Position numbers and translations under genes: made by a program. Positions 65 through 61,313 of a stretch of 64,000 nucleotides of DNA are shown in pieces. This DNA comes from Bremia lactucae (Eukaryota > Oomycota > Peronosporomycetes > Peronosporales > Peronosporaceae). The DNA lies in assembly GCF_004359215.1 (NCBI RefSeq), contig NC_090611.1, positions 5,746,188-5,810,187 on the forward strand, in the 5' to 3' direction. The notes beneath the pieces are model-generated. The model did no database searches, was not told the DNA's origin, and saw only the letters and a program-made list of their open reading frames with translations. Numbering within the stretch: position 1 is the stretch's first letter; each line of letters starts with the position of its first letter.

Positions 65-960
65 GTGGAAGAGTGAGTAGACATCACACGAAATGTCCGT
101 GACGCGATGGCAAGCGCACAGGACAAGCAAAAAGAATATGCGGACCGAAACGGTCGCAAAAATAATGAAATTTTTAGAGTGGATGAAAAAGTACTATTAA
201 GTACTGCCACCCTACCTAAGAATGCAATTTATGTACTACCTGAAGGTACTACGAAGTTGTTGCCGCGTTTCATTGGGCCCTTTACGGTGGTAGAAGAGGT
301 TGGAGAGCCTAAATTACAGGCTCACCCTTCCCCCGTATATGAAGACGCACCCCGTATTTTACGTGGGTCAACTGAAACGGTATGTAGACTCAAATGAGGT
401 CACATACCCCCATCCGTCTAAGGAGACCGATGGTGACGCCGACTGTAAGTCGAGCGTCGTTCGGGTGAGGGGGATAAGGAAGGCGAAAAGCTATCGGACC
501 GACTACTCCCACCACGAACAGGACTTGGAGAGCGAGAAACATCACGCGAGTAACGCGGATCCCTCAGTATTATCCTTTCAAAGAGGTCTAAGGGAGTCTT
601 CAGGCGTTTATAACCCTGACGAACCTTCGCTCAGACATCAACGGGATCCGACGTCAGTCACGAGACTTGACCCTCGCGATCCGCAATACGTCGTTCCGCC
701 GCGCTTAACGCCTCTGACTGAACGGACGAAGGTAAGACAGCCGCGAGTATTTGGGCGAGATCAGCACTCTTTTTGGGCGCCGCCTGCACTAATTGATGCG
801 GGTGGGAATCAACGCTTCCTTGTTGGAAGGTTGCTTGCCCACCGCTCCATGAGGCAAGGGTATTAGATCCTCGTCCAATGGAAAGGTTAGCCGAAGAGTT
901 TTGACTCTTGGGAACCGATCGATACCCTACGTATTGATGTGCCCAGCTTGATGGTTGGCT
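65..960 (+). pseudogene. Integrase C-terminal region with chromodomain (family A pol)
   Basis: Two overlapping frames carry the integrase tail: a GPF-type stretch (KLLPRFIGPFTVVEEVG) typical of the GPY/F module of Ty3/Gypsy integrases, followed after a frameshift near 300 by a THPVFYVGQLKRY stretch, the usual sequence just after that module. From about 838 to 960 a chromodomain remnant is readable (LVQWKG, then FDSWEP), interrupted by stop codons. The chromodomain of chromoviral integrases is known to steer insertion to marked chromatin. At least one frameshift and several stops make this copy non-functional. Confidence 0.8.
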
Positions 961-1244
961 GCCTATGAAAAGGAGCACCAGCTGAGGCCTCTTCGCTAGT
1001 CTCAAATGGACAAGCAGAAGCAGCATTGTGAGAAGAAACAGGGGGTACAGTACCGCCCATGATTTCTTCTACACGCAAGCAGGGGAATTCGCTGCGACCG
1101 CTGTTTCATCGCATCGGAATGCGGATGAATGCGGCGCAGGAATTCCGCCACGTATTGGTCGCGCGTTTCATTTACGCAACACGACCGGGATCAGGAAAAT
1201 ACGCCCAAACGAGTTTCCCTGAGCCCTCCATGATTTAAAGCATC

Positions 1245-1517
1245 CTACCTCATGAGCTCGTTGTCCGCATCACTGCAATGAGGTGACGGAAACGATGTCG
1301 CCTCATTGTAGTCGACAATGAGCGACGGATCAACATCCTCACTGTTGAAGTGGGATGGATCCTCAGGCCCTGTTAACGCGATAGCAGCAGTAGCTGTCGG
1401 CGTTTCGACTAAGGCAATAGACGCTTCCGGCGTGTTAACACGGCGCGTGCGCTTAGTGCGAGGTTGAGTCGGCGTCTTCGCAGACGACCCACCAACATGG
1501 CCCCTTTTAGGTGGCAT
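1245..1517 (-). CDS. Antisense frame of family A element, N-terminal part (copy A1)
   Basis: A 90-residue frame that starts with ATG at 1517, 131 bp inside the 3' LTR, and runs against the direction of gag-pol. It begins with a basic patch (MPPKRGHVGG, then RTKRTRRVN) that looks like a nuclear localisation signal, followed by a Ser/Thr/Ala-rich stretch and an acidic segment with DPSLIVDY. The same frame is present in copy A4 (61313 downwards), including the TAG after the LMR codons. In A1 a deletion removes the sequence beyond that stop. No known family is recognised. The position, basic start and DPSL-x-VDY motif match the antisense frame of family B. Confidence 0.55.
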   Translation of the reverse strand: MPPKRGHVGGSSAKTPTQPRTKRTRRVNTPEASIALVETPTATAAIALTGPEDPSHFNSEDVDPSLIVDYNEATSFPSPHCSDADNELMR

Positions 1518-2200: not shown

Positions 2201-2489
2201 TAAATGGACGAAAAGAAAGAAAGATGACATTAACCCCCTCGGGGTTGCTTGGAACCAACTTGACATTTAAAAGAGTAACGTTTGTGATCGTCGTATGCTG
2301 CAAACGTATCGCTGATACCGGTGCAATTTTCGTAAGCGAATGAGCAATGTTCAACATATTGGATACTCTCGTTCACTCAATATGACCAAATGGATTATCG
2401 ATTACATCATTAATAATAGCTCCTCAACTGGATTGTTCGTGTAAGTTCTTGCAATAAAATTAGGAAAATGTTATATTTACCCCACCTTT
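2201..2489. other. Spacer between elements A1 and B1
   Basis: No gene seen. The last 30 bases (TTATATTTACCCCACC) resemble the C-rich ends of the MULE elements at 62240 and 39197, so this may be a scrap of a DNA transposon end. Confidence 0.4.
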
Positions 2490-2929
2490 CGTAACGGGCA
2501 CTGCCGACTTGTACTGCTTTAGTACAGGTCCACTTCGCACTGCCTCATTGCGAGTGGTGCCTCACATCACTTAACGTTCACTAGTACGTGCAGAAGAAGA
2601 CTCTCTTTAATACACTTGCTTTAAAGAGGATTAATTAAAAACTGTATTAATATAATTAAGTTCTTCTTGTCTATCTACTTAATGTTAACTTAATTATAAA
2701 CTAATACAAAACATGTACTAAAAGTCCTATATGTTTTTCTCTTTGCGCGCGTCCAGCGCTGACTCGACTGCGGAGAAAGCAGATATAATGGTCTATATCT
2801 ACCAATGGATAAGCTTTTTAAGAATATTACCCTGTAAAGTAACATACTCCAAATATTATCTACCTTTTAGATAATATATTAATTAACAACCTTACGTGTT
2901 AATTTCATGTAACGATACACACCGTTTCA
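2490..2929 (-). repeat. 3' LTR of family B (copy B1)
   Basis: About 440 bp, degenerate at both ends (GTAACGGGCA... and ...CACACCGTTTCA on the plus strand) but homologous along its length to LTRs at 15611, 28925, 38777, 46638 and 63595. On the element strand the LTR begins with a palindromic 22-mer of the type TGTAACG-N8-CGTTACA. Confidence 0.85.
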
Positions 2930-3052
2930 TCACCCCTCCCTTAAACGACAATCACTGTGACTGTCATTGGGTAGAGTGGTCACTATACGACCACTTTATT
3001 AGCACAATGTTGATTAACCAGATTCATCATTTTTCGCATAGTTAACAAGTCC

Positions 3053-4475
3053 ATGCGGTATGCGAATAGTGCGGCGCCTTCGACTGCGGTTCCTGCAGCC
3101 GCGGGCGACGCATTATTGTCTCTTACGGCAGACTTTCCGTCTGCCGCAGTGTCATCTTCTCCCGCAACTCTAAATGTTGCGGGTGCACGTGGTGATACAC
3201 CAAGTGAATGCGACCCCTCTTTGTAGGTCGACTTCGAATGCGAGCCGGACGAATTGACCGACCCGGGGTGAACAGCACAGTCGCCTGATCATCGTTAGGC
3301 GGCTAACTATGAGCCTTCGAATGAGGGGGCTCACTCGAGTAGACGTGCTGGTAGCATTTGCTAGGGCATGTTCGGTTCCGACGATGAGGATGATTCCTCA
3401 TCGCCAGTACCGTCTCCCGTGCCGTCACCCGCACATATTTCTGTGTGGTGATGACGATGGCGTAAGCCATGGCAATAAAAGTTCTTGTGGTGCCCCTGCT
3501 TAAGTGGGTACCACTCAGAGATCGTAGACACTAAAATGTCCCGTCTTGCCCTTGAGAAAAGGCCATGGCTTTTGCCCGAACAGCTAATTAATAGCTTGTC
3601 TGGAGAGACTACTCCTCACAAAAAATATCTCGTACTTATTTTTTTTTTGCGACAAGCTACATGGCCTTGATTCCAGCGCGAAGAACTTTCGCGCTGAGGA
3701 AGATTTTTTATCTTGATGCTTTTGTTAAGCATCGATGGTATAGTGGCAACAATAAGCGAGATAAAGTCTCGCTTATGCAAGCCTGGAGCGCGTTCATTCG
3801 CAATGTCAAAGAGATTGGACGCGAAGCCTGGCTTCAAAGACTTGACGCGATTCGCGTCAAGTTTAATAACGAACTCCAACAAATGCAACGTATAAATTGC
3901 ATCGGTTGTCACGTGAGCCAAAACTTCCATGCCTCACGTGGGGTGATACCTGCGCGTGTTGCGTTGAAAACAACAAGCGATTAAAAAAGGATGTCTATTC
4001 CCTTTCTTCGCCCTGGGAAAGGGCTCGCATCTCAATCGAGATGCGCGATGCGATTGACGTTTTGCAATCGATTTACATGCGCCAGGGGCGCGTGTATTCC
4101 GATGGGCCTTCTGAACCATCGGATAAGTCTCGTCATACTGACGGTCGAGGCCCTTATCGTCAACAAACAGCTGGGAACGAGGCTCCCAGCTGTCATGTGA
4201 AGGTGAAAAACCGCGCCAGCGAACAAGATAACTTGTTCGCTGCCCCTTCACATCACTTTAGTTTTGGATACGTTCCACACGGAAACGTTGAACACCGTGG
4301 GAATCCGCCAATGGTTAGGAGGGAAAAATTAGATCCGACCCACGTGTCGGATCTAGAGTCGAAGATCGACAAACTCGATCGCTTCCTCCAGGATTTGAAG
4401 GAAGGACTGGATCACGAGCGCAGTAAGCGTCGCTCGTTAGAGCACAATGGAATCCTGTACGGAACGTATTACTGA
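3053..4475 (+). pseudogene. Antisense gene of family B element (copy B1)
   Basis: Plus-strand coding relic opposite to the element's gag-pol. The N-terminal part is Ala/Ser-rich then acidic (PSL-stop-VDFECE, then SDDEDDSSSP), followed by a conserved middle region (KRPWLLPEQLIN; LMQAWSAFIRNVKEIGRE), a cysteine signature (PCLTWGDTCACC at about 3924-3959) and a charged helical C-terminus (DLESKIDKLDRFLQDLKEGL). Frames from 3661-3984 and 3897-4475 are open, with frameshifts between them. The region 4117-4251 is at the same time the antisense of pol chromodomain codons. After about 4455 the sequence jumps to integrase, so the last part is deleted. Function unknown. Confidence 0.6.
4117..4251 (-). 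pseudogene. Chromodomain of family B pol
   Basis: The minus strand reads TSYLVRWRGFSPSHDSWEP followed by RSQL, a clear chromodomain core: two aromatic cage positions (Y and W) and the WEP helix entry. Chromodomains at the integrase C-terminus define chromoviruses. Here it is separated from the integrase by a deletion (junction near 4455), so it is no longer in one frame with it. Its complement codes for part of the antisense frame. Confidence 0.85.
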
Positions 4476-4507
4476 TTCTCGAGTCAGCAGAAATTCGTCG
4501 CGCCGAC

Positions 4508-5983
4508 TCATTTGTTTTTGTCTTTTCCAGTGCGCTTTGTGCGCACTGCCATGAGATCTTTCTTATCTTCGATGTCGATTGCTTCGACATCGAGATCATT
4601 CGCGTCGTTGGTAACTTCGACGCGTGATGAGCATGAGCTAGAGCTGGTTCTGCTCGTTCGAGTCCCCCCCCTTAAAGTAGAGGATCCCTCTAATTGGGTG
4701 AATATGCGTGGATTGCGTAAGCCATTTACGAAGAACGGTGTATGCATTGTAGACGCATGCACTGAATTGTTGGTGGCGAATGCGACCATCGGTAGAACCT
4801 CGCTCCAATTCGGATACGATTGGACGAAACCTCGAAGTGTCTCTTCGAGGACGCGATCTTCGCGTTCCGTCTGACCATCTGTTTCTGGATGATCAAAAGT
4901 TGACATAGTCAGCCGCGTTTCGAGAGATCGCATCACGGATTGCCAAAACTCCGCCGTAAACCTTGGATCTCTATCCGAGACCAGTAAACGGGGTAACCCA
5001 TGGAGTTTGAATACCGTGTCGATAAAGACACGGGCACAACCCGGAGCCGTAATCGACTCTGGTACTGCAGCAAGGTGTACCATCTTGCTGTATCTGTCTA
5101 CAAAAACAAGGATTCCATTGTTTTTGTGATCTTCTTCGAGGGATCCGAAGACGAAGTCCATATATACACACCGCCAACACTCTGCTGGAAGTGGTAGAGG
5201 TTGGAGAGGAGCACATGATGAAGGGCTAGGCTTCATCTGCTGACATACCTCGCAAGCACCGATATGGCAGGGCCAGTAAAAGTCGCGACTTACTTTGCGA
5301 TAAGTCTTCTCACGTCCACGATGCCCACTTGTTGGTGCATCGTGATACTCATACATGATGCGCAAGCGCTCATCATTGTGAGTTGGGACGACGACACGTG
5401 GAGTGTCGCCGGCACCGGCTGTGTAATACAATAAGCCGTTGCGTGTTGTGTATCGATCGGATGACGATCGATATAAAGCCTGTAGATCTTTAAAAGATTC
5501 ATCGAATGGATTCATTAAATGATCCATCAAACATAGAAGGTCCTTATCTTTTTTGTAGGCTTTCTTTATGTCATCAACTAAGGTTGATGACGGAACACGG
5601 GTAATGAGTGTTGCAACAGTGGGATTATTTTCACTGTTGGAATGCGCAGCCGGATCGAAATCGGGTCGGCGTGTTAACGCATCAGCGACGACATTAAGTC
5701 GTCCTGGTTTATATTCGACGGAGAAGTTATACTCCGCGAAGAAGGATAGCCACCTCGCCATTCTTTGCGAGAGGTGTGGGCTATTGACGGCCGTGCGTAA
5801 TGACGCATGGTCCGTATATACGATGAACGGTCTATCTCCTAGGAGGTAGACCCTAAATTTAGCCAATGAATATTTCATGGCAAGGAGTTCCTTGTCATGC
5901 ACTGGGTAATTGCCTTCAGCTGGTTGCAGCTGACGCGATTGGTAACAGACGACGCGCTCCGCGCCGTCTGTATTGTATTGCAT
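4508..5983 (-). CDS. RNase H - integrase part of family B pol (copy B1)
   Basis: Longest open pol segment of the B elements, 491 codons. The RNase H part carries SRQLQPAEGNYPVHDKELLA and YTDHASLRTA, matching RT-linked RNase H of Ty3/Gypsy. A linker leads to the integrase zinc-binding region (YEYHDAPTSGHRGREK then CEVCQQ) and the catalytic core with Asp in VYMDFVFG, Asp in LLVSDRDPRF and Glu in REDRVLEE. All three acidic residues are present. There is no start codon at the true protein start, since RT lies upstream in broken frames. The C-terminal end is altered by a deletion that removed the GPY/F module. Confidence 0.85.
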   Translation of the reverse strand: MQYNTDGAERVVCYQSRQLQPAEGNYPVHDKELLAMKYSLAKFRVYLLGDRPFIVYTDHASLRTAVNSPHLSQRMARWLSFFAEYNFSVEYKPGRLNVVADALTRRPDFDPAAHSNSENNPTVATLITRVPSSTLVDDIKKAYKKDKDLLCLMDHLMNPFDESFKDLQALYRSSSDRYTTRNGLLYYTAGAGDTPRVVVPTHNDERLRIMYEYHDAPTSGHRGREKTYRKVSRDFYWPCHIGACEVCQQMKPSPSSCAPLQPLPLPAECWRCVYMDFVFGSLEEDHKNNGILVFVDRYSKMVHLAAVPESITAPGCARVFIDTVFKLHGLPRLLVSDRDPRFTAEFWQSVMRSLETRLTMSTFDHPETDGQTEREDRVLEETLRGFVQSYPNWSEVLPMVAFATNNSVHASTMHTPFFVNGLRNPRIFTQLEGSSTLRGGTRTSRTSSSSCSSRVEVTNDANDLDVEAIDIEDKKDLMAVRTKRTGKDKNK

Positions 5984-7018
5984 TTGCGCTCAGCCGATTG
6001 CGAAATTGATGGCGTCACAGACCACATGGAATGGTCTGTCTTGATCTGCAATCGCCAAGATAGGCGATTGCATCAAGCTTTGCTTGATACCTTCAAAGGA
6101 ACGCTGACAATCAGCGTTCCATAGCCATTTCTCGTCTTTTTTTTAAGAGACGAGAGAGATGAACTGTCATCTCGGCAAAATTGCGGCAGTACTTGTGCAA
6201 GTACGCCGCTAATATCAGGAACGTTCCAAGTCCCTTGACATCGACTGGAACTGGCCAGTCGGTATTTGCCTTGATCGTTTCGGGATCAGGGCGCACGTCG
6301 TGGTTCCCGACGATGCACCCAAGAAGTGGTATTTCGCTTGCAGCGCGAATATACTCTTCTTGAGATTTGCGTACAACTTACGTTTTCGCATAAGTGTAAG
6401 GAACCTGACGAACATGAGTTTTATGAACTTTTATTTCCGTCTTCCCGTCCATGTCTTGTCTATGGACGAATACATCGTCAAAATAACTCAATGCGAATTC
6501 TCGCGCCGGTCTCAACAGCTCCGTTACGCATCTGTTGAATTATGCAGGGGCGTTACTAAGCCCCTGTGGCGTTACTAGTCATTCCCAGAGCATCCCGCTG
6601 GGAGTGCTCACTGCTGTGTACGGGATGTCTCGTTCAGGCATAAGGATCTGATAAAATCCATCCATCAGATCCATAGATGAAAAGATGGTACTCTTAGACA
6701 TATAATCTATGATCACGTCTTTTCTCGGTATCGGCGTTTAAGCCGGTACCGTTGCAGCATTCAGTTTATTAAATGCGTGCACTATCCGCCACCCTCCTGT
6801 GGCCTTTCGCACACAGAAGGTCGGAGAGCTATGTGGGGAGGTTGACTCCTTTCATGGCCCGCTTTTACGCGACCGGTAAAGAATTTATCGATCGCAAGTA
6901 CTTCTTCACGTGGCAGTGGCCACTGCTTCACTGACACAGTACTTCGAGCCCGGTTTGAGCTCGATCTAATGTCGAGTGCCTTAATCCATAGGCAACTCGC
7001 ATGGAACTATCTAGGGAA
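5984..7018 (-). pseudogene. Reverse transcriptase remnants, family B (copy B1)
   Basis: Minus-strand frames broken by stops still show the connection region (DWPVPVDVKGLGTFL, LAAYLHKYCRNFAEMTV) and the upstream NAPxxF-like and PQG region. The coding direction and order match 35391-36625 in copy B3. The RT catalytic region is degenerate here. Confidence 0.75.
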
Positions 7019-7444
7019 TACAAGGACTCGCTCGAGCAAAAAAAAAGTTTAGCTCTTGCTCATCACGCATTAGCACTAAGGTCAATGCGAAAGATACTAA
7101 TGTTGATTTAATTTACATTGAGGTGGACAAACTCAGTAATAACAATAATGTTATTACTGACTTTAATAACGATGCTGAAAGACTTAACATCAAAAAGAAA
7201 ATTATTAATGAGAACGATAATACTCTTAATAACGAATAGATTTAAATACCGCAGTGCGAGCCGGTCGCACTGAAAACAAAAAAAGAGATAGCAGGTAATT
7301 TTTTTTGGCTTGAGAAGCATGGGTCCGTCTTGTACAGGAGTCCATCGCTGATGCGGTGGACCAACAGAAACGGAAGACAACATACCATCAATTAATTCTA
7401 ATAACCCAGTCGTACTGTCTACGGTTGACCTTCTGAAACATGTC

Positions 7445-7660
7445 GTGATGAAGGCAGTGATAAATTACTGCCCAGGTATATTGGGCCGTTTTGTGTTCTA
7501 CATCGCTGCCTCGTGGTATGCGTGCGCGCATCCTACGTTTTATGTTGGGTATCTATGGGTACGAGGCTTCTTCCAATTCCGGGTTACACCGGAACGGTCG
7601 AGGGCATCGCCAAAGCCTGATGGTTTCGAGCCAAAGCCTTGTTGTCTCGGAACATAGTCT
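7445..7660 (+). pseudogene. Integrase C-terminal GPY/F region (family C)
   Basis: Plus-strand frames contain a decayed copy of the integrase tail seen at 26930-27110: a GPF-like segment, then HPTFYVGYL and YGYEASSNSG, the usual post-integrase sequence before the chromodomain. Frameshifted. Confidence 0.65.
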
Positions 7661-9249
7661 GATTCTCTTGAACCAGACGATCCACTCTTTCCTTCAAGGA
7701 AGAGATCTTCTGACGAGCTGTCACCAGCTCGTTTTGAAGGGACTGACATGTCCTCTTGTTCGCCATTTGTTCAGTCGCAACCTGCGCACAATTTTTCATA
7801 TGGTCACGAAACACATTGTCGACAGTCACCGCTAACTCGCTGCGATGGGCTCGCTCGTGATCAAGATCCTCCTTTAGATAATAAGAGGAGTGGTCCAATC
7901 ACGATGTTGATTCGGGCTCGTCAAATGAGTCGATCCCGATTCCCCCCCCTCCACATCCGTTGACAAATTCGAGTGATGAGAAGCATTTTCATGTTGAAAG
8001 CTTCTTGAACCGCCGTGAGGTAAAGGGGGTTCGAACGAGTCATCTCGTTCGTTGGCGAGGGTATCCACCCTCGCATGATAGTTAGGAACCTCGTTCCCAA
8101 CTGATGTTGGACGGGTCTCGTCTTGCAGTACGATGAGAACATCCGCCTCGACAGAGAGTCCATCAAGAACGAACGTTTCCCGCGCTCGTAATAGTATTGA
8201 AGGTTCTCAATCCCTTGATGCATCTTGTTAGATGAGCGTCCTCAAATGAGAATCTTTAAGGGAATATTTCTTTGCTCTCTACCTCAAGCTTTGGGGTACA
8301 TGCTTCTTTAGAGGCATGACCTGCCCCTTTAAAACAGCATTGACATGAGTCCCCCCACGAAAGGCAAGGAATTCCTGCCTGTCTAGACAAACGTTGTAGC
8401 TTATAGTGTGCACCGACTACGGTCCGTTTCTCGAACCGTTCACGGAGAGCATTTAGCTTGTCAGGCCTATGTTTTGCATATTGAGCACAAAGGCTGTCCA
8501 AGCTTGGAGCAAAGGTTTGCATCCTTCCCCCGCATAGAAGAGTACTACCGATGCCGATAAAGAATTCCGTCTCATTCTCACCAGTGAAGCCTGGCTGAGT
8601 CAAATAACGGAATGTGATATCGATCGTTGTCATACCAGACCAACGAATTAGGTTATTCTTCGAGGGGAAACTATGTCTATTTTCAGGAGCGAGCCGCAAC
8701 GTTTTGCGATTCCTCTCTTGATGGCGCATGTTAACGTTAACTTGGCCCTTGAAGCAATCCCTAGAATCACTCCTTTCCTGGCGTATGCAAACTAGCACCA
8801 CCAGTAACACTCTTCCCTACAGATCACTTAGTTTCTAGTGACGTATACTTAGTCACCAGAGTGATCATCGCCCACGAAGTCACCATCCGATGACTCCCCA
8901 CCAAACTCGTCATCACCTCTTAGGTTGTCACATTAGAAACCAAAGGTTTAACGGACTCGTCCTTAGGTGATCCGGCGGCATTTACAGTAGCCACTGAGTC
9001 GGGCGGTGCCGGTGACTTGGTCCAGTCACCTACAATTGGTGTAGCAGGTGACTTGTCACCGTCACCTGCAATTATATTATCAGATGACATATCTCAGTCA
9101 CCTTCAATTGGGGTAGGAGGTTACGTATTCCACACAGTCGACGCATTAGCGTCTACTTAAACATTTGCAATACTAACAGCTGCACTAATCCGTGCAGCTG
9201 CCAGCTTTGCGGCCTCACGGGCCACGCGCACAGACTTGTTTGTCGCCAT
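7584..9249 (-). pseudogene. Antisense gene of family C element (copy C1)
   Basis: Starts with ATG at 9249, 145 bp inside the 3' LTR. The first codons (MATNKSVRVAREAAKLAAAR) match the start at 29700 in C2. Then come an acidic Gly/Ser/Asp stretch and a long open part (8810-8256) with ENRHSFPSKNNLIRW, SLDSLCAQYAKHRP and LSRQAGIPCLSWGDSCQCC. The C-terminal part (7898-7584) is coiled-coil-like (LVTARQKISSLKERVDRLVQ). Several stops and frameshifts make this a relic. It aligns over the middle domain with the plus-strand frame of copy B1. The segment 8038-8130 is antisense to the chromodomain. No family recognised. Confidence 0.6.
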
Positions 9250-9393
9250 GTTGATCTCGGTCAAAATCAATAAGGCAAATAATAACGGTATTTTGATTAA
9301 AATCAATAATGCAAAATTACACGGAAAGACATAATAGTATTTCCGGTCACCCTACATCAGTCGCAATAGTGACTGTTAGTTAAGGTGGGGTGA

Positions 9394-9875
9394 TGAAATG
9401 GGGTGTCTCGTTTCATAGGTATTATTTCCTATAAGAGGAAATAAACAAAGAAATACGAAATTATATCTTCATTAATTTTAACTTAAATAGTACTCATATT
9501 ACCAAATTTGGTAATTGATACAATAAAACATTAGGTCTATTGATCGGTTGATTTAAGTCTAAATCAGTCCAGTCAATCATTATAAGACAAGGATAGTGTG
9601 GATCGCAAGGACGCGACATCCTTAGTTAAATATTAATATAATACGTTCAGAAGTAGATAGATGATCGTTACTTAGGAAACTAAATACATTAATACAGCTT
9701 TACTATTCTCTATTGATAAGCCTTAGTCTAGACCTGTAAGCTAAAGACCCTAAGATCCATAGAAACCTTCCTCTGTAACTTTGTGTACGTGTAATTTCGA
9801 GGCATCTCACCTACATTGTAATCAGTGTAAGGTTAACTAGTACTGATCAGTACTATTGAAAGGTGCCCCGTTACA
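9394..9875 (+). repeat. 3' LTR of family C (copy C1)
   Basis: 482 bp, starts TGAAATGGGGTG (degenerate TGTAACG) and ends GGTGCCCCGTTACA; homologous to 29917-30374. Preceded by a purine tract. Confidence 0.88.
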
Positions 9876-10006
9876 CAAGTGGTGGGTCTAATTACTTCAC
9901 TTGTGTGGGGCAACTTTCATTGCGAATAGGTGCGAATCCAGCGTGGGAAATGCGTCGTCTGTGTACGTGCTACATGTGATGCTCACTCACAGGCTTCACC
10001 ACCGAG

Positions 10007-10339
10007 CTAAGAAGTTGTCATCACCACTTTTGTTGTTCTGTTAGGATCATGGCAGGGGTATGGCCATTTCCATATGTTTCGATCCAAACAAGGAGATTTT
10101 CTCTCTCTTGTCCTCATATGTCTCAACACTGACAACAAGAGGGCAAGCCTTAGGCTCCTGATCAGGTACAGGAATTTACCGAGTTGCATAAATGCTGCTA
10201 AGTGGTCCGATATAGAAAGATTCATGTTGCAGAAAGGCTTTAAGCCTTGCAACAAGAACCTTTGGGCCCTGAAAAGGATGTGATCTCTACGATCCAGCCC
10301 AAACAAATTTGTAAGGTTATCAAACGCTACGCGTTTCAC
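10007..10339 (-). pseudogene. Gag-like fragment, family D
   Basis: Minus-strand frame with RVAFDNLTNLFGLDRRDHIL, FRAQRFLLQGLKPF and AFMQLGKFLYL. A related reading is found on the minus strand at 43180-42998, upstream of a family D protease and RT fragment, which suggests this is part of a retrotransposon gag. The family assignment is inference. Confidence 0.4.
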
Positions 10340-11316
10340 CCCTAAAAGTTTGAGAAATGGATCTATGTCAGCAGACGCTCGGACTTATAAAGACTCAGGC
10401 GTAGATTGGCGAATCGGACTTAATTCATTAAGATTATACGAAAAACTAAACTTTAATTAAAATTTAAAATGTGGAACCTTACCTTAATTCCACCAGATCT
10501 CTATCTGGTGGCTACTACTCGTATTTCGTATCACCTACATAAAAATGGGATTGTTTTAGCCAATCAGAAGCCTTACTTATTGCGCTCCGCATATTTTTTT
10601 TCACGATAAAAAAACATCGTTTTGAATCGGGCTGGGTCAAGTTGATCTACTCTCCATATCCTTCTTTTTGACTTGTAAACAAGCGGGTCCTACGAATTAT
10701 TATCAATCACAATACATTCTCTATATCACACTCAATTTCTACTTTCTTCCTTGTCAGGCTGTTCTACAATGCTTCCACCACACCACCCAATGCATCCTTT
10801 CCCAGCACAATGGCCCTGACGGATGCAGCTCGCGAATTCGCTCATGCAGAAGGATATGCTGTGTCTACCCTAAATTCCGACAAAAAGAAGATTATTTTGT
10901 AATGCGATCGACGTGGTACCTACCTGCAAAGGGCAGCAACATGACTTGAGTTGCCGCGAAACTCTGCGAGCCGATTGACTAATTGCCCGTTTCGTCTATC
11001 AGGGCGTCTACCAAGCGATAACAGCTTGCAACTGCGAACTTTTCATAGGGAACATAATCATGAACCTTCAGACAACATAAGTAGTCATCCGACTGCCTGA
11101 CGCTTTCAATCAGAGCAAAATTTGTTAGTACAAAAACTTCTTAAGGCTGGGATTGCGCCGAAAGAAATTGTCACAACCCTACGCCAAATAGATCCCAGCA
11201 CAAAAGCAATAGGAAGGACAATCTACAACGAGCGCCAGCGGTGCGAGCAGAAGAGCTTCGCAATCGTACACCACTGGACGCTCTATTTGACATTCTGCAT
11301 CATGCAGAGTGGGTTT

Positions 11317-11357
11317 ATAGGTGTGAAAGATGATTATCATCATCTTTTCACACCTAT
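11317..11357. repeat. Inverted duplication (hairpin) in MULE transposase
   Basis: ATAGGTGTGAAAGATGAT at 11317-11334 and its reverse complement at 11339-11357 (one extra A), with a 4-nt loop TATC. Confidence 0.85.
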
Positions 11358-11401
11358 TCTATGCCAGCCAAAAATCTGTGGAACTCCTTTACAGACATCC
11401 A

Positions 11402-11455
11402 TACGCTTTGGTGGCGGACTGCACCTAGATAGGTGCAGTCCACCACCAAAGCGTA
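11402..11455. repeat. Second inverted duplication (hairpin) in MULE transposase
   Basis: 25-base arms (11402-11426 and 11431-11455) with a single mismatch and a 4-nt loop AGAT. The left arm codes for the region around the catalytic VADCT; the right arm is its inverted copy. Confidence 0.88.
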
Positions 11456-12576
11456 AGGATATCTGTGATCGATTCATAATGCCGGATCCTCCATATCACT
11501 GGTGTCACAAGCTTCAACACTTCCTCCCAATTGCTATTGCTTTCATCAGGCATGAACGTGAAGCGGACTACCTTTGGGCTCTCGATCAACTGCCACAGAC
11601 AATCACAACAGACCGAGAATTTGCCCTAAAGAATGCCCTGAAATAACATTTCCCACCTCAACCCATCTTCTATGCGTTTAACATATTTAAAAAAACGCTC
11701 TAGCAAATTGTCGTAAGTTTTTTGGACCTGGGGATGACTGGAATAAATTCGTGAAGAGTCGGACAGATGTAATCTATTCGAAATCAGAGGAAGTGTAAAT
11801 CAATCTCATGATAAGCATGCACTCAACATATACTGCACTGCCTAACATGCTGGCCTATCCGGATACCACCTGTCTGACACATAAAAATTAATTTATTTAC
11901 GCATACACCAGGAATTGCATGCATTTTGGCCACGTCACATCATCGAGAGCTGAAGGGCTTCATCATATGTTAAAGAGCTACATAAGTGTTCCGGAAAAAA
12001 CTTGGGTGATGTACAAACTCGCGTAGCTCATGCTGCTTAAGCCCAGATTGAAAATCTTGGTGTTTAGCTGTCGTAGGAGCGAATGCAAGTCATGCACAAA
12101 CACAGAAAATCCCTTTCTTTGCTGTAGTGCGCCGCATTTCAATATACGCACTAGGAAAATGCTTTGAGCTATGAGTTATCTGAAGATCCTACCAATGCCA
12201 CCATAACCTGTTCAGTTGCGTGTAATTCAAGAATGGAATACCCTGTCAGCATCAAATAATCTGCTTTTCTAAGAAGTGGCCGCCCTCTCACTGTTAAGAG
12301 TTTCCACCATTAATGGCGCTTGGATGCAGCTGCGCCTGCAGCCATGCCTGAAGTGGGTAGACAAAATGTTGCCACCATATTAGAGGCTGTCAAAGAACGT
12401 TACAACATGGTGGAGTATCGCCATCAAGAAACCATTATGGGAACAGCTACGATAAATTGCAGTCTGGATGATATGGCTCCAAGAATTCTGTCCCTTAGCG
12501 TACTCGTGGTCGCTCAACTGGATCTAGACCGTCACAAAAAATAATAATGTGCATCAATCATCAAGGCAACGAGATC

Positions 12577-22181: not shown

Positions 22182-22796
22182 ACATGAGTCTGAGCGCTAA
22201 AAAAGAGGACAAAACATCAATATATAGGATAGGACGGGACAATTACTACTATTGAACGAAAAATTGCCGTATGGGTTTAAAAAGAGTAAAACCACATTTT
22301 AGGAAGAGAATTTCTAAACTCACTTCATGCAGTTTTTAGTCAATTTAATTTCTGAATTACAGCGTATCACATTGCATTACATAGATCAACGCCAAACTCT
22401 CCGTGCACGATCACCAACTGCGGCGTTATCTGACGGCTTTCCATTGACTTTTTTGCGCGGTTTAGAAAAGTTGGAACCGTCCTAGAACGAAGTGCAAGTA
22501 AAGATTTTTTTAAATACAAGAATGCTGGTATCCCATCATGACCCAGACCGTCCCGAAAATTCAAGTAAGCGAAGCCATAAGTGCTTGAACTATCCTTTCC
22601 AAGTCACTTTAAAGCAAAGAGCTTGGAAGTTGGAGATAGATAATGGTGCTCAAAACCATGACCTTGTGCATCTTAGTGCATATTCTTCCGTACGCAGGCT
22701 TGGGAATACGGCAAGTCAGCAGGTGGTTCGCTTCACAATGCTGTTGTCCCTTCTAGAACAATTTAATAATTGTCTCTCGTTCATCATGGCCAACTA
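22182..22796. other. Spacer between PP2C gene and element C2
   Basis: No gene recognised. Element-derived sequence with clear homology begins at about 22797. Confidence 0.4.
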
Positions 22797-23659
22797 ATGA
22801 ACGTCTTTGAGCGTTACAGGCGTGTGGATGTCGTACGAGTGAGTGCGATGGCCTCACTTGTGGTTCGGTCGTTAGCATGACTGCACAAGACCTCAGTGTG
22901 AATACCCAGCACATTGTGGAGTTAGATCCCGACGGCTGTGCACGAGCAAATGCAACATCGAAGGTCCGCTATTGTGACGTGGACATAGTTATTGACGGAA
23001 GTGCACAAGCACAGGCAGCGTCGAAGTTCAACCACTCGAATAAGTTAAGAGGTACGAAACAAGGATGCTTTCTTGAAAAGCAACATCCAAGAGAATTTGG
23101 AACGCCCGTCTATAAGAGAGAGTGCGAAAGTCCTTGCTCGACTGGAGAGTCGATCGTGAAGGATATCGCTGTGGTAGCGCAACCACAGCTAGAGGATGTT
23201 GGGGAGGATATTCACCAAATAATTTCTGAGAGAAGAAGTCCCCGGAAACCTGTGGTCTAAGGTTCCCAGGTACCTTTGGAAATAAGTTCCAAAGAAGAAA
23301 CTGAGACAATCAATGTCTTAGTAAACAATGGATCAAGTGTAGGCGCTTATACACTTGATCTATTAGCGCCTCCGAAGTTAACTTCGGAGATAACTCGATT
23401 GCCAACGCTATAATCGAAACGGTTTTTGCTGATCTGCGTAGTAGTAAAGTCAAGCAGATCTGCCTACTTGTCACAGATGACGACAACGTGGCCAATATTC
23501 GGTCGGCAATCGTATTTCTTGAGAACGAACGGATTCTCAATAGCTCATCGATAAACGAAAGTGTCCTGAATGAGAAGATTCGGATTATACGTTTTACGTC
23601 CCGATCCTGGGAGTCTTTGAAAACAACCCATATGCATAAAGATTTAGTTGAATTTTAGG

Positions 23660-26216: not shown

Positions 26217-27533
26217 AGTGTTCAAATCACTTGGATCACATTTAAAAATGTCAACTTCTGATCATCCTGAAACAGATGGTCAGACGGACCGTGCAAACCG
26301 TATTCTCTAAGAGATACGTCTCGGACACGTCCACTCTTTTGACAGCTGGAGCGAGTTCTTGCCGATGTAGAATTTGCCATCAACAATTCAGCGCATGCTT
26401 CTACAAAGCATACACCATTTTTCGTGAATGGCTTACGACACCCTCGTATCCCTATGCTGTTTGAGAGTAACTCTTATTTAAGGGGGGAGGGACTCGCTCG
26501 AGCAAAGAAGCTTTAGCTCTTGCTCATGACTCATTAGCCCTAAGGTTCAATGCGAAGGATACGAATGTTGAGTTTACTAACATTGAAGTGGACAAACTCA
26601 GTAATAACAGTTATGCTTTTACTGACTTAGACAACGATGCTGGAAGACTCAGCATCGAAAACAATACTATTAATGATAATGCTCTCAATCGTGAAGAGAT
26701 GAATATCTCCGCAGTGCGAGCCGGTTGCACTGAAACAAAAATAAAATCGAGTCAGCAGGTGGTTTCCTGCTGGCTAGCGAAGCAGTGGTCCATTTGTACG
26801 GGATTCCATCGCTAGTGCGGTGGACCGACAGATACGGAACTCTGACAAAAATGGAAAAGCAAACACACTTAAATTTAAAATTAATGACCTAGTCATACTG
26901 TCTACGGTAAACCCACCAAAGCACGTAGTGACGAGTGTAGGCAGTAATAAATTACTGCCCAGGTATATCGGCCCGTTTCGTGTATTACATCGCTAAGGCA
27001 ATGCATACACGATCGAGCTGCCTCGTAGAATGCGTACGCATCCTACTTTTTTTGCTGGTCGTCTCCGCTCACGCCATCAGTACGAGGCTTCTTCCGATCC
27101 GGATTACACCGGAACGGTCAAGGGCATCAGCTAAAGCCTTATGGCTCCCAGCTAAAGACTTATTGTCTCAGAACAGGGTCTATTTCTTTTGAGCAAGACG
27201 ATCCACTCTTTCCTACAAGAAAGAAAATCTTCTGACGAACAGTCAACAGCTTCTTTTCGTTCGCCAGTTTGTTCAGTCTCAATCTGCGCACAACTTTTTA
27301 CCTGGTCACGAGAAACATTGTCGACCGTCACCGCTAATGCGCGGCGACGAAATTGCTCGTGGTCAAGATTCCCTCTTAAGGAAAAAAGGGTGTGATTCGA
27401 ATTACAATGCTGAATCGGGCTCGTCAAACGAGGCGAATCCGATTCCCCCCCCACATCCATTGATGGGTTCGGGTGGTGAGAAGCGCTTTCTTGTTAAAAG
27501 ATTCTTGAGCCACCGTGAGGCAAAGAGGTTCGA

Positions 27534-27650
27534 GTGAGTTATCTCGTTCGTTGGCGAGGGTGTCCGCCCTCGCATGATAGTTGGGAACCTCGTTCCTAAC
27601 TGATATTGGACGTTCCGGGTCTCGTCTTACATTACGACGAGACCCATCCT
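27534..27650 (+). pseudogene. Chromodomain of family C pol (copy C2)
   Basis: Frame reads SYLVRWRGCPPSHDSWEP, the chromodomain core, shortly after a GPY/F integrase end at 27110. Same core with a TGG-to-TAG change at 8038-8130 in copy C1. The complementary strand codes for the antisense frame. Confidence 0.8.
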
Positions 27651-28120
27651 CCTTGGTAAAAGGTCCAACGGAGAACGAGTGCTTCCCGAGCAAAAAAGTA
27701 TTGAAGGTTATCGATCCCTTGACGCATCTCGTAAGAGATGAGAGTCCTCCAATGGGGATCTTTGAGGAATATGCTTCCTTAGGGCATTTACCTGCACCCT
27801 TAAAACAGCATGGACATGAGTCTCCCCACGAGAGGCAAGAATCCGTGCCTCTCTAAACATAGGGTGCAACTTATAGGGTGCACCGAGTACGGTCCGTTCT
27901 GGAACCGTTCACGGAAAGCATTTAGCTTGTCAAGCCAGACCTCACAGCCTATGTTATGTACATTCTATACAAAGGCTGTCCAAGCTCGGAACAAAGGTTT
28001 GACATCCTTTGTTCGTTTGCAAGTGTACCACCGATGCCGGTAAAAGGCATTGATGAAGAATTCTGTTTCAACCTCACCAGGCTTGTGAAGCCATGATGAG
28101 TCGAATATCGGAATATGATA

Positions 28121-28405
28121 ATCGCCAAGATGGGCTATCGCATCAAGCTTTGCTTGATACCTTCAAACGAACGCTGACAATCAGCATTCCATAACCATTT
28201 CGTCTTTTTTCAAGAGACGAGAGAGATGAACTGTCATCTCGGCATAATTGCGAGAGTACTTGTGCAAGTACGCCGCTAAATCAAGGAACTTTCTAAGTCC
28301 CTTGACATCGACTGGAACTGGCCAGTCGGTGATTGCCTTGATCTTTTCGGGATTAGGGCGCGCGCCGTGTTTACCGACGATGCACCCAAGAAGTGGTATT
28401 TCGCT
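28121..28405 (-). pseudogene. Pasted fragment of family B RT/RNase H inside the antisense gene
   Basis: 285 bp nearly identical to 6046-6350 in B1 (connection region with DWPVPVDVK). It sits between sequences that are contiguous in copy C1 (near 8620), joined at a short ATCG-like overlap on the left and TGATCG on the right. Confidence 0.8.
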
Positions 28406-28924
28406 TTTGATCGTTGGTCACACCAGACCAACGAATGAGGTTTCTCTTAGAAAGTAACCAAGGCCTCATTTCAGGAGCGAACCGCAACGTATTGCGGTCC
28501 GTCTCCTGCTGGCGCATGTTAACGTTAACGTCAACTTGGCCCTGGGGGCGATCTCTAGATTCATCCTTTTTTCTGGTGATACAAACTAGCACCACCAGCA
28601 GCACTCTTACCTTCGCGACCACGCTATTCCTGGTGACAAACACTAACGTCACCAGAGTTTTGGTCATCGCCCTCGGAGTCATCTGATGATGACTCCCCGC
28701 CAAAGAGGTCCGACAAGTTTAACAACCTCGTCACCATGTTTTTGTAGTCACGTTAAGAACCAAAGGCTTAACGGGCTGGGCCCGGTGGGAGAGGTGATCC
28801 GGCGGCCTTCCCAGTCACCACTGAGTCGGGCGATGCAGGTGACTTGGACCAGTCACCTACGACTGGTGTAGCGGGTGACGTGTCCCCGTCATCTACATGT
28901 CATCAACAGATGACAAACCCCAGT

Positions 28925-29544
28925 TGTAGCGGGCACTGCCGACTTGTACTCCTTTAGTGCAAGTGGTGCTACACGTCACTTCACGTGCAAAGAAGACTCT
29001 CTTCAAAACACTTGCTTCAAAGAGGGTTAAAAGTAAGCTGTGTTTAATATATAATAGGTTCTTCTGTTTCTATCTATCTATTACCAACTTAATTTTATAC
29101 TAATACAAAACCTGTAATAAATTCTTTTCTATCTCTCTCTTTGCGCGCGGTGGCTGGGATGGTGGCTGGCTGGTAAATCACGCTTCATGCAGCAAAGTAA
29201 TATGACATCCCATCATTCAGACGTACTCTCGACGATAGAAATACAAATATAAAGGGTGTTTGAAACGTCTCCTACTGTTGAGAATGGAACAGTCGCCTGA
29301 TATACGTCAGGCGGCTGACTGAGCCTTCGAATGAGAGGGCTCATTCTGATAGACTAGTAAACAGTCACGATGAGGCTGACTGGACTGCGGAGCAAGTAAA
29401 TATAATGATCTATATCTACCAATGGATAAGCTTTCCGAATTTTATTATTAAAAGTAACATTCTCCAAATATTATCTATCTTTTAGATAATGTATTAATAA
29501 CAACCTTTAAGTGTTAATTTCATGTAGCGATACACCCCGTTACA
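28925..29544 (-). repeat. Nested solo LTR of family B with target-site duplication
   Basis: 620 bp, TGTAGCGGGC...CCCCGTTACA, flanked by CCAGT (28920-28924 and 29545-29549). It is about 170 bp longer than other family B LTRs because of an internal insert (about 29143-29380) that includes 29279-29355, a copy of antisense-gene sequence also seen at 34802-34880. Confidence 0.93.
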
Positions 29545-29916
29545 CCAGTCAACTCCAATGGGAGCAGGAGGTGACATATCCCACGCAGTTGACGCATAAG
29601 CGTCTACTGAAACATTTGCCTTACTGACAGCTACACTGATCTGTGCAGCTGCCAGCTTAGCGGCCTCGCGGTCCACGCGCTCAGACTTGTTTGTCGCCAT
29701 CTTGATCTTGGTCAAAATCAAGAATGCAAATAAAATCGATATTTTGATTAAGATCATATTGCAAACAAAACGGGTTATTTGATTAAATCATAATGCTAAT
29801 AAAATTGGTATTTAATTCAGAAAAACAATAATGCTAATTACAAGGAAACACTTAATGATCGCCCTGTCACCCTACATCAATCACTGTAGTGACAGTTGAT
29901 TAAGGGGTGGTGGTGA

Positions 29917-34264: not shown

Positions 34265-34266
34265 CG

Positions 34267-34572: not shown

Positions 34573-35390
34573 ATGAAGAACAAATCCATGCGGGATGCTG
34601 TAAAAACAGCGCCTTCGGCTGCGGTTCGTGCAGCCGCGGGTGACGCACTGTTGTCTGTTGCGGCAGACGTTCCGTCTGCCGTAGTATCTTCTTCTCGCGC
34701 AACACTAGATATTGCGAGTGCACGTGGTGATTCAGCACGTGAATACGACCCCTCTTTGGAGGTCGACTACGAATGCGAGTCGGATGAAATGGCCGACTCG
34801 GGGAGAATGGAACAGTCTCCTGATAGACTTCAGGCGGCTGACTATGAGCCTTCGAATGAGAGGGCTCATTCTGATAGACGAGTTAATAGTATATTTGGAT
34901 CCGACGATGAGGAAGATCCCTCATCGCCCGTTCGATCTCCCGTACGGTCACCTGACCTGTTTCTGTGCAAGGTGATGACGACGGCATAAGCCATCGTAAC
35001 AAAAGTTCTTGTGGTACCCCTGCTTCAGTGGGTACCATATAGGGGAGTAAAGACAATAAAATGTCTCATCTCACCCCTGAAAAGAAGCCGTGGCTTTTGC
35101 CAGAACGGCTTATCAATAGCTTGTCTGGAGAAACTACTCCTCATAATTAATATCATTTATTTTTTGCGACAAAGCTACATGGCCTTGATAAGATTTTTAT
35201 CTCGATGCTTTTCTTAAGCATCGATGGTTTATTGGCAACAATAAGCGAGATTAATTCTCAAGATTTTTATCTCGATGCTTTTCTTAAGCATCGAGGTTTA
35301 TTGGCAACAATAAGCGAGATAAATTCTCTCTTATGCAAGCCTGGAGCGCGTTCATTCGCAATGTCAAAGACATTGGACGAGAAGACAATC
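34573..35390 (+). pseudogene. Antisense gene of family B element (copy B3, 3' truncated)
   Basis: ATG at 34573, 119 bp inside the 3' LTR; 139 codons are open to 34989. Sequence: basic start MKNKSMRDAVK, Ala/Ser-rich part, EYDPSLEVDYECESDE, then a strongly acidic SDDEEDPSSP stretch with SPVRSPVRSPD. Beyond a frameshift the PWLLPERLINSLSGETTP block and LMQAWSAFIRNVKDIGRE follow. A 70-bp tandem duplication lies at 35190-35328. At 35390 the sequence jumps to RT. This is the best-preserved N-terminal half among the B copies. No known family. Confidence 0.6.
35190..35328. repeat. 70-bp tandem duplication
   Basis: Units 35190-35259 and 35260-35328, both starting AAGATTTTTATCTCGATGCT; absent from the equivalent place in B1 (3706-3780). 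Confidence 0.9.
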
Positions 35391-59169: not shown

Positions 59170-60400
59170 CCACACCTATATAGATTGGTGGCCAACTATA
59201 TTCGATCTTGCGAACAGTGTCAGCGCATTAAGCCTGCACAGTCCAGCAGTGCGCCACTGGAGCCGCTACCGATTCCAACCAACTGTTGGAAGTCAGTAAG
59301 TCTGGACTTCATGTTTGGCATGCCGCCGATCATAAGATTCGGGCGGGGCTAGTCGTCTTGGAAGACAGACTGTGCAAAATGGTGCATTTAGCACCATGTA
59401 AATATCGATCACAGGCAAGGAGGCAGCTGTCTTGTGCCTGGATCATGTATACGGACTACAAGGGATGCCCGAGTCCATAGTATCGGACCGAGATCAACGC
59501 TTTACGTCTGGTTTTTGGCGACATGTGTTCAAGCTGCTAGGTAGCAAGCTCCACATGTCGACCGCAGATCATCCCCAGACCGATGGCCAAACAGAACGTG
59601 CCAATCGGGTCGTGGTGGATGTCTTGCGCACTATAGCAACTCCTTCGTGATTTCGCTATAAATAACAGTGTCCAGGCCAGTACGGGTGAGACACCGTTTT
59701 ATATTAACGGACTGCACCATTCTCGAACGCCAGTCTCGTTTGTGCGCAGCCCGAGTCTTGGTGGGGGAGAGCCCCTCACTATGCTCGGTGCGAAAGAGGG
59801 GCATAGTTCCGTCAATATGACGATGACCCGCGAGGGTATCATCTCAACGATAGAAACTTGCCCTAATGACCCTGAGTTTAGCAGTGGTCAATAAAACTAC
59901 GTCTTATGACCGACCTCTCGGCTGTGTCATAGGCGAGTTTGATGCCTAAAGCGTGAGCGAGGCTCAACGCTTTGTGGAAGAGCGAGTAGCCATCACACGA
60001 AATGTCCGTGACGCGATGGCAAGCGCACAGGACAAGCAAAAAGAATATGCGGACCGAAACGGTCGCAAAAATAATGAAATTTTTAGAGTGGGTGAAAAAG
60101 TACTATTAAGTACTGCTGCCCTACCTAAGAATGCAATTTCTGTACTCCCTGAAGGTACTACGAAGTTGTTGCCGCGTTTCATTGGGCCCTTTACGGTGGT
60201 AGAAGAGGTTGGAGACCTACGGGGATGGGGACGGAGAAGGCGAAAAACTTATAGCCGACCGACTCCCTCGTCCAATGCAGATGTTACCTTAAGAGTTTTG
60301 ACTCTTGGGAACCGATCGATACCCTACGTATTGGTGGACCCGGCTTTGTGGCTGGCTGCCTATGAAAAGGAGCACCAGCTGAGGCCTCTTCGCTAGTCTG
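59170..60400 (+). pseudogene. Integrase and chromodomain remnant, family A (copy A4)
   Basis: After the stop at 59167: CEQCQRIKP (zinc Cys pair), a frame with VSLDFMFG (first catalytic Asp), [16 protein letters not shown] (second Asp) and [17 protein letters not shown] (Glu), then a frameshift and the C-terminal frame 59953-60396 with KLLPRFIGPFTVVEEVG. Chromodomain traces (KSFDSWEPIDTLRI) are in another frame at about 60285-60340. Not functional. Confidence 0.82.
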
Positions 60401-60674
60401 AAATCGACAAGCAGAAGCAGCGTTGTGAGAAGAAACAGGGGATATAGTACCGCCCATTATTTCTTTTACACGCAAGCAGGCGAATTCGCTGCGACCGCTG
60501 TTTCATCGCATCGGAATGCGGATGAATGCGGCGCAGAAATTCCGCCTCGTATTGGTCGGGCGTTTCATTTACGCAACACGACCGGGATCAGGAAAATACA
60601 CCCAAACGATTTTCCCTGAGCCCTCCATGATTTAAAGACGCCATAATAATTATGTGCGTCTACAAGAGTGCGCT

Positions 60675-61313
60675 TTAGGAGCGACGCTCTTGGCCCGTTT
60701 TAACGAGCCATTTAGATGGAGGGCGCATTAGTGATATGTCACCCATCACATAGCCACGTTCTAAACGACTGGCTTGTGACACCGACTGAGCACGTTCACG
60801 TGTCGTCGGCGGAGCTTTAGGCTCTGAATCCTCTATTTCAGAACCATTTTGGATTATGGTCTGAGCAGAAGGCGTTGCAGTCATACTCAACGGAGAAGCG
60901 GCTGCGCCTTTATGGGCAGCGCTCTCATTACCTATCGCTGCGCTATCTAGCGCAGACGACGATACAGCATTCGTAAATGTTGCTGTCTCCATGTTATGAG
61001 CCATGAGAGAAGTTTGGATGGGCAATAATGCGCCATTATCCTACCTCATGAGCTCGTTGTCCGCATCAATACTATGAGGTGACGGAAACGGTGTCGCCTC
61101 ATTGTAGTCGACAATGAGCGACGGATCAACATCCTCACTGTTGAAGTGGGATGGATCCTCAAGCCCTGTCAACGCGACAGCAGCAGTAGATGTCGGCGTT
61201 TTGACTAAGGCAATAGACGCTGCCGGCGTGTTAACACGGCGCGTGCGCTTAGTGCGAGGTTGAGTCAGCGTCTTCGCAGACGACCCACCAACGTGGACCC
61301 TTTTCGGTGGCAT
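60675..61313 (-). CDS. Antisense frame of family A element (copy A4)
   Basis: ATG at 61313, 134 bp inside the 3' LTR. First 90 codons: MPPKRVHVGGSS, RTKRTRRVN, a Thr/Ala-rich part, HFNSEDVDPSLIVDYNEA. One TAG at 61041-61043 interrupts; the same frame then continues for 120 codons to a second stop at 60675 (Ser/Ala-rich, SEIEDSEPKAPPTTRERAQS). The TAG is also present in A1, so either the protein ends there or the stop is old. Lies between pol and the 3' LTR, antisense to them. No domain recognised; DPSL-x-VDY is shared with the B antisense frame. Confidence 0.5.

What the first reader, a model, noticed from the sequence alone, without database searches (positions are those of the whole stretch)
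2930..4480. Gene-like frame antisense to gag-pol in three chromovirus families
In families A (1517, 61313), B (3053, 34573) and C (9249, 29700) a frame starts with ATG about 120-220 bp inside the 3' LTR and runs against gag-pol. The start position, basic N-terminus, Ala/Ser/acidic part and, in B and C, the middle domain and charged helical C-terminus correspond between families whose LTRs do not align. Antisense genes are known from a few plant Gypsy elements (for example Grande) and from retroviruses such as HTLV (HBZ), but I know of none described for oomycete chromoviruses. Seen: position and motifs. Inferred: that it is or was a real gene, possibly driven from the 3' LTR in reverse.
Basis: partly seen in the sequence, partly recalled or inferred. 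Interest (0 to 1): 0.92.

Follow-up and report, generated by a model that had tools for sequence, protein, structure and literature searches.

The report
Antisense gene in oomycete retrotransposons
Jumping genes of what looks like a downy-mildew water mould carry an extra protein gene written backwards against their own replication genes; relatives occur in other downy mildews and selection has kept it, so it probably does a job for the element.

Summary
In detail: these are decayed remnants of a genuine gene. In 34 of 34 type-B copies examined, pol's chromodomain lies on the opposite strand inside the frame; in the two copies measured, pol's last ~700 bp overlap it. Across copies the frame is constrained about as much as pol: pN/pS 0.67 (helical domain) and 0.60 (coil) against 0.61 for pol and 0.88-1.17 in control frames apart from the mirror frame. 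B and C encode one protein family: disordered N-terminus, helical domain with a conserved H-C-C-C set, long coiled coil, KKxR tail. A encodes a second family of similar layout; A-B homology is not shown and selection on A was inconclusive. The kind ('aORF-3R') is known from plants and the fungal element Boty; the proteins and the pol overlap are new. Expression, promoter and function are untested. Separately, B/C elements are packed with short hairpins written through synonymous codon order.

The parts
2491..2931 (-). 3' LTR of element B1 (element on the - strand)
   Evidence: self-BLAST repeats
3053..4445 (+). B1 antisense gene remnant: residues 1-197 of P0001 in one frame (3053-3640) and 114-465 in another (3396-4445); end of coil missing
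   Evidence: tblastn; first stop after 57 codons
4072..4251 (-). chromodomain at the end of pol, opposite antisense residues of about 340-398
   Evidence: PF00385 34.1 bits, cut-off 25.1
4444..4445 (.). deletion junction: typically about 515 bp present in other copies is missing here
   Evidence: split matches in 21 copies
4508..5983 (-). B1 pol (RNase H, integrase zinc binding; integrase core just under its cut-off)
   Evidence: Pfam
34573..35383 (+). B2 antisense gene remnant, residues of about 21-256 in three frames
514..1517 (-). A1 antisense gene remnant (second protein family), residues 1-453 of P0125 in five pieces
60274..61313 (-). A2 antisense gene remnant, residues 1-332 of P0125 in two frames
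7632..9249 (-). C1 antisense gene remnant (B/C protein family), inside a composite unit present in 33-35 identical copies
   Evidence: matches 8512-7632, ATG 9249
27317..29700 (-). C2 antisense gene remnant, interrupted by a B-like LTR at about 28924-29546
   Evidence: match 28111-27317, ATG 29700

Best explanation
Chromodomain-bearing Ty3/Gypsy elements of downy mildews carry an accessory protein gene on the strand opposite gag-pol. It starts about 120 bp inside the 3' LTR, runs towards pol, and shares about its last 235 codons (~700 bp) with the end of pol. The B/C-type product (about 450-590 aa) has a disordered acidic/Ala-Ser N-terminus, a helical domain with conserved H282, C292, C299 and C302 (putative metal site), a disordered linker lying opposite the chromodomain, a long coiled coil lying opposite the pol spacer, and a basic KKxR tail. 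Most likely it is a coil-dimerising nuclear protein that binds nucleic acid or chromatin and regulates the element's own expression, targeting or silencing, as proposed for Grande GENE23, Retand TRP28 proteins and, in retroviruses, HBZ. Shown: the gene, its position, conservation, constraint and overlap. Inferred from layout only: dimerisation, nuclear role, nucleic-acid binding. Not tested: transcript, promoter, protein, effect. Likelihood: a real, selected gene in B/C about 0.95; nuclear regulator about 0.5.
For: Homologues: 204 proteins at E<=1e-3 (120 listed), named ones from Peronospora matthiolae (clusters of 524 and 1,335 members), P. effusa and Hyaloperonospora arabidopsidis (profile search, 120 of 177 listed). 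Own genome: 89 match rows to P0001, 18 without a stop, 11 of these over 250 residues (78 of 10,152 candidates scored). Position: chromodomain on the opposite strand inside the frame in 34 of 34 copies. Constraint: pN/pS 0.776 (N-term), 0.669 (helical), 0.748 (linker), 0.603 (coil) against 0.605 for pol (34 copies mapped to the antisense protein, 27 of them to pol). Nucleotide alignment of 28 of the 34 copies: third positions vary 1.58 times as much as the mean of first and second in the non-overlapping helical part (CI 1.31-1.90). Fold: disordered 1-165, helical domain 167-345, helix 429-536. H282 in 36 of 37, C292 37 of 37, C299 and C302 36 of 36 rows with a residue there.
Against: No RNA or protein evidence was at hand. 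No Pfam family at E<=0.01 in four full-length proteins, no PDB sequence match at E<=1 for the L012 frame, no Foldseek hit at E<=0.001 in PDB or BFVD, so nucleic-acid binding is inference; the model is weaker (block pLDDT 56-75) around the Cys motif, residues 291-330. Codons were assigned by tblastn to P0001, which may favour that frame; the phase test free of this is not significant for coil (1.11, CI 0.89-1.40) or linker (1.15, CI 0.82-1.58) and weak in the N-term (1.23, CI 1.02-1.47). In the linker, pN/pS is not distinct from control frames, and the mirror frame -2 is low throughout (0.65-0.89), as it is for pol (0.65). Most copies are broken: 0-12 stops per mapped copy over 34, 1-3 frames in 30. 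I saw no clearly intact full-length copy in this genome.
Confidence: 0.6

Rival explanations
1. The antisense frame is a by-product: reading pol's C-terminus backwards gives an open, coil-like frame by composition, without a product.
For: The C-terminal ~235 codons do overlap pol; the mirror frame of a coding sequence has lowered pN/pS (pol frame -2 0.653); the phase signal in coil and linker is not significant.
Against: The first ~325 codons lie past the pol stop in the two copies measured yet show constraint (0.669 helical, phase 1.58) and conserved homologues. Opposite the coil the antisense frame gives 0.603 while the sense frame gives 1.08 (0.88-1.32) by the same map and 0.888 (0.79-1.00) by its own.
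Confidence: 0.04
2. The antisense RNA, not the protein, is what matters: it anneals to gag-pol RNA and steers or dodges RNA silencing.
For: Sense and antisense genes converge and overlap. An RNA role is a possibility raised for plant elements (PMC7264820, passages seen). In another oomycete, Phytophthora infestans, small RNAs map to Gypsy elements in both orientations (PMC3522703, passages seen).
Against: Amino-acid level constraint and cross-genus protein conservation are not needed for an RNA role.
Confidence: 0.12
3. It is a transduced host gene, or a gene of another mobile element trapped in the 3' region, with a function of its own.
For: No Pfam family matches it; one H. arabidopsidis homologue is named 'Core-binding (CB) domain-containing' by UniRef.
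Against: The 34 type-B copies examined have it in the same place opposite pol; named P. matthiolae homologues include large repeat-like clusters. No host-gene search was made across oomycete genomes.
Confidence: 0.1
4. It is a structural accessory of the particle (assembly or chaperone via the coiled coil) rather than a nuclear regulator.
For: Long coiled coil and helical domain; a gag partner is plausible (inference).
Against: Basic KKxR tail in 7 of 7 proteins printed (chosen for complete tails) and the conserved Cys/His set are more usual for nuclear or nucleic-acid-binding proteins (inference).
Confidence: 0.2

Closest known systems
aORF-3R genes of plant LTR elements: Grande GENE23, RIRE2, PvRetro13 (PMC7264820: passages and section 5 seen)
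   Same: Antisense ORF near the 3' LTR, present in most copies, conserved like other element proteins; Grande's product is nuclear
   Different: These plant proteins were not compared with mine directly; no Pfam family in mine; in the oomycete B elements the gene overlaps the chromodomain end of pol; the host is an oomycete
Retand TRP28 antisense proteins (PF04195; PMC11963269: passages seen)
   Same: Antisense, pol-3'LTR region, possible DNA-binding regulator
   Different: No PF04195 match at E<=0.01 in P0001, P0125, P0016, P0076; Retand is non-chromovirus with a pol-3'LTR region of 2.9-6.6 kb
Boty (Botrytis, Sclerotinia), a non-plant aORF-3R (PMC7264820, section 5)
   Same: Antisense ORF between pol and 3' LTR outside plants
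   Different: Protein not compared here; fungal host
HTLV HBZ (retroviral antisense gene; named in PMC11963269 passages, details recalled)
   Same: Antisense near the 3' LTR, helical coil-forming product
   Different: HBZ is a bZIP protein (recalled); P0001 has no Pfam match at E<=0.01
Oomycete Chronos elements (PMC5348765, passages seen)
   Same: Oomycete Ty3/Gypsy elements with a chromodomain after integrase
   Different: Chronos has an extra archaeal/plant-type RNase H; none listed by Pfam in the B1 pol ORF; 'antisense' occurs 0 times in that paper's main text

Membership tests
antisense accessory ORF near 3' LTR (aORF-3R) | antisense to gag-pol, adjacent to the 3' LTR | tested here: met
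   34 of 34 B copies with chromodomain on the opposite strand; ATG about 120 bp from the LTR in four A/B copies. It also overlaps pol's end.
antisense accessory ORF near 3' LTR (aORF-3R) | conserved to a degree similar to other element proteins | tested here: met
   type B: pN/pS 0.60-0.78 by region vs pol 0.605, though the linker is not distinct from controls; type A inconclusive
antisense accessory ORF near 3' LTR (aORF-3R) | transcribed from its own antisense promoter | not testable with these tools
   no RNA data
Retand TRP28 / PF04195 proteins | PF04195 domain | tested here: not met
   hmmscan Pfam-A, E<=0.01, none in P0001, P0125, P0016, P0076
HBZ-type bZIP antisense protein | bZIP domain | tested here: inconclusive
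   no Pfam match in four full-length proteins at E<=0.01; the C1 coil fragment gave bZIP_1 at 15.7 bits, cut-off 27.6, among 22 sub-threshold families
chromovirus-like Ty3/Gypsy element | chromodomain at the C-terminus of pol | tested here: met
   PF00385 34.1 and 34.9 bits, cut-off 25.1, in two B copies; not found in the one A ORF tested
chromovirus-like Ty3/Gypsy element | RT/RNase H then integrase order and RT phylogeny | tested here: inconclusive
   RNase H, H2C2 and rve in order in B1 (rve 32.1 bits, cut-off 32.6); RVT_1, RNase H and H2C2 (19.5 bits, cut-off 25.5) in A2; no RT tree made
Chronos | additional archaeal/plant-type RNase H between RNase H and integrase | tested here: inconclusive
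   not listed in B1 pol; no dedicated search
tyrosine recombinase core-binding domain | CB (SAM-like) domain | tested here: inconclusive
   UniRef name of P0007 only; no Pfam match in four other members; fold searches list no clear match

The most novel reading that the evidence does not exclude
Downy-mildew chromodomain elements are two-way coded genomes. A selected antisense protein shares DNA with the end of pol so that each strand is structured where the other is freer (coil opposite spacer; linker opposite chromodomain), and the element is folded, through synonymous codon choice, into a dense array of short hairpins present on both strands, perhaps to keep convergent sense and antisense RNAs from annealing into dsRNA.
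Probability: 0.12. Interest if true: 0.88.

Novelty: new variant of a known kind. Interest (0 to 1): 0.64.

Why it matters
Antisense accessory genes of LTR elements are known from plants and a fungus with no assigned function; I saw none described for oomycetes in the listings (open-licence library; most papers seen as listings only). This adds two protein families without a Pfam match, one of them in clusters of over a thousand members in one species, and a case of an antisense gene that shares DNA with pol under measurable constraint. It gives a testable system for what such genes do, and suggests that many 'uncharacterized' downy-mildew proteins are element genes.

Tried and rejected

Papers: PMC7264820 (passages, section 5), PMC11963269, PMC5348765 and PMC3522703 (passages) read; the others seen as search listings only; two searches listed none.

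Full report
What is in the window. Self-BLAST places the A and B ATGs about 117-135 bp inside the 3' LTR edge. The right end of the finding is a deletion junction: 21 other copies match bases 1-1411 and 1412-1477 of the query as two blocks, 500-522 bp apart in 20 of them and 328 bp in one, so B1 has lost the end of the coil and the GPF/Y part of pol.

Is it a gene? I held 30 B copies (the best DNA matches) and later four more B copies and one A copy chosen from match tables. A single open frame of 383 codons in copy L012 found 204 proteins at E<=1e-3, 120 listed: 40-58% identity to the listed Hyaloperonospora arabidopsidis, Peronospora matthiolae and P. effusa proteins over 43-87% of the query, with P. 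matthiolae clusters of 524 and 1,335 members, and unnamed ENA contigs such as P0001 (559 aa, 77%). A profile search listed 120 of 177, again with only these three species named; Phytophthora was not among the names shown, which does not exclude it. P0001 matches this genome at up to 99% over 353 residues, so it comes from this or a close species; the species is not told (the assembly size recalls Bremia lactucae, from memory, untested). In one search, 18 of 89 match rows carry no stop, 11 of them over 250 residues; only the 78 best of 10,152 candidates were scored, and very long 'open frames' in some rows reflect masked N runs. One near-full-length row without stops (L069) still holds a local frame slip, seen by eye, so I saw no clearly intact full-length copy here.

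Selection. Codons of each copy were assigned to P0001 residues by tblastn, stops excluded, and pN/pS pooled over pairs with a bootstrap over codons. Antisense frame: N-term 1-165 0.776 (0.70-0.86); helical 167-318 0.669 (0.59-0.75); linker 345-427 0.748 (0.61-0.92); coil 429-545 0.603 (0.50-0.72). Pol in the same copies: 0.605 (0.55-0.66; 27 of 34 copies mapped). Control frames other than -2 lie at 0.88-1.17 in pol, N-term, helical domain and coil; in the linker windows they lie at 0.74-1.07, so the linker value is not distinct. Frame -2 is low both for pol (0.65) and for the antisense gene (0.65-0.89), as expected for the mirror of a coding frame. Opposite the coil the sense spacer frame is open (23 stops in 3338 codons) with pN/pS 1.08 (0.88-1.32); measured on the sense ORF itself the spacer gives 0.888 (0.79-1.00), so it is at most weakly constrained. 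GPF/Y gives 0.689 (0.54-0.88) and the chromodomain 0.755 (0.51-1.19) in the sense frame. A check without protein alignment used 28 of the 34 copies (six left out) in a nucleotide alignment: third-position excess 1.58 (1.31-1.90) in the helical part, 1.23 (1.02-1.47) in the N-term, not significant in linker (1.15) or coil (1.11). The non-overlapping evidence is therefore the stronger.

Geometry. In 34 of 34 B copies the chromodomain lies on the opposite strand inside the antisense frame, opposite residues of about 340-398, most of which the model shows as disordered (349-427). The coil lies opposite the stretch between GPF/Y and chromodomain. The antisense frame of L011 ends at 3193, opposite residue ~85 of the sense ORF whose SH3_Tf2-1 (GPF/Y-like) match is residues 33-96, 29.5 bits against a cut-off of 30. 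In L070 and L071, the two copies measured, the sense ORF stops near antisense residue ~326, an overlap of about 235 codons. In A1 the antisense match 312-453 lies at 939-514, largely opposite the 300-866 pol ORF, a similar arrangement.

Protein. AlphaFold2 on P0001 with 38 sequences: disordered 1-165, helical domain 167-345 (block pLDDT 83-92 over residues 171-290, 56-86 after), disordered 349-427, one helix 429-536. Conserved residues include W243 and R272 (37 of 37), H282 (36 of 37), C292 (37 of 37), C299 and C302 (36 of 36): a possible H-x9-C-x6-C-x2-C metal site. KKxR tails occur in the seven proteins printed, chosen for complete tails. No Pfam match in four full-length members, none in PDB by sequence for the L012 frame, no Foldseek match at E<=0.001 in PDB or BFVD.

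Families. B and C are one family. A is a second family: L073 has an open frame of at least 365 codons running to the end of the fetched stretch, 21 homologues at E<=1e-3 including P. effusa and P. farinosa, similar layout with a predicted C-terminal helix 382-437 (low-confidence model overall). Its relation to B/C rests on one short motif, DPSLxVDY, at a similar place (p about 0.19) and is not shown. Selection on A was not resolvable with three copies.

C1 is not an active element here. Its 1461-bp region occurs in 33 identical copies and a stretch 1.6 kb further on, with a MULE-like ORF (PF10551, E 0.0017, below cut-off), in 35. C1 thus rides in a recently amplified composite unit, so its broken antisense frame says nothing about need. 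A second set of 28 rows shares the same five stops.

Hairpins. Stems of 7 or more with loops of 3-12 occur 15 times in 3034-4500 against 0.75 expected. Within the antisense-gene span the 34 B copies carry 6.8-16.0 per kb, and density rises with identity to P0001 (Spearman 0.51; copies are not independent); over whole loci with flanks 4.6-14.3 against about 0.3-1.2 expected. Shuffling synonymous codons leaves about 1-2 where 13-19 are seen in the antisense frames of L069, L070, L071 and in B1 pol, 0 of 200 shuffles reaching the observed number; three host ORFs show no excess (0-1), type A shows 5 against 0.81 in the antisense frame and 2 against 0.81 in pol. Folding z-scores over 1000 nt: -14.4 (antisense strand) and -17.4 (sense strand) for L069, -0.28 for a host gene, 20 shuffles each. 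Within B the stems are inherited without covariation above shuffles. Between families 53 of 78 double changes keep the pair, counted in both directions and with shared sequences, so an overcount; one third to under a half would be expected by chance (my estimate). Cause unknown.

Mechanism. Most likely a nuclear accessory regulator of the element, by analogy with aORF-3R proteins; the steps after 'gene under constraint' are inference.

Noticed in passing
window 2400-10000, 22700-39200, 42800-47100; loci L009-L072: Dense array of short perfect hairpins (about 10 per kb, roughly 10-20 times expectation) through B/C elements, encoded by synonymous codon order in the frames tested, not in three host ORFs. 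Between families 53 of 78 double changes keep the pair, an overcount. Unexplained.
   Followed up: partly
window about 6350-12100 (C1, neighbouring RT fragment, ORF 11122-11646): Composite unit in 33-35 identical copies across the genome with a sub-threshold MULE transposase match: a recent burst, perhaps of a Mutator-like element carrying retroelement pieces.
   Followed up: partly
genome rows such as G000:C1:4308947-4309468: A second set of 28 rows at 60% identity to the C1 antisense piece with identical match values and the same five stops, perhaps another recently copied unit.
   Followed up: no
window 28924-29546: B-like LTR inserted in the C2 antisense gene; the two C1 match blocks overlap by 4 bp there (9095-9098), which would fit a target-site duplication.
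   Followed up: no
window 57310-58793: Direct repeat of about 730 bp at 98% inside the A2 pol ORF, with a residue read as X at the join: possibly an assembly duplication.
   Followed up: no
window 49472-50515 (-): ORF with four WRKY19-type zinc-finger repeats (PF24906, 104 bits).
   Followed up: no
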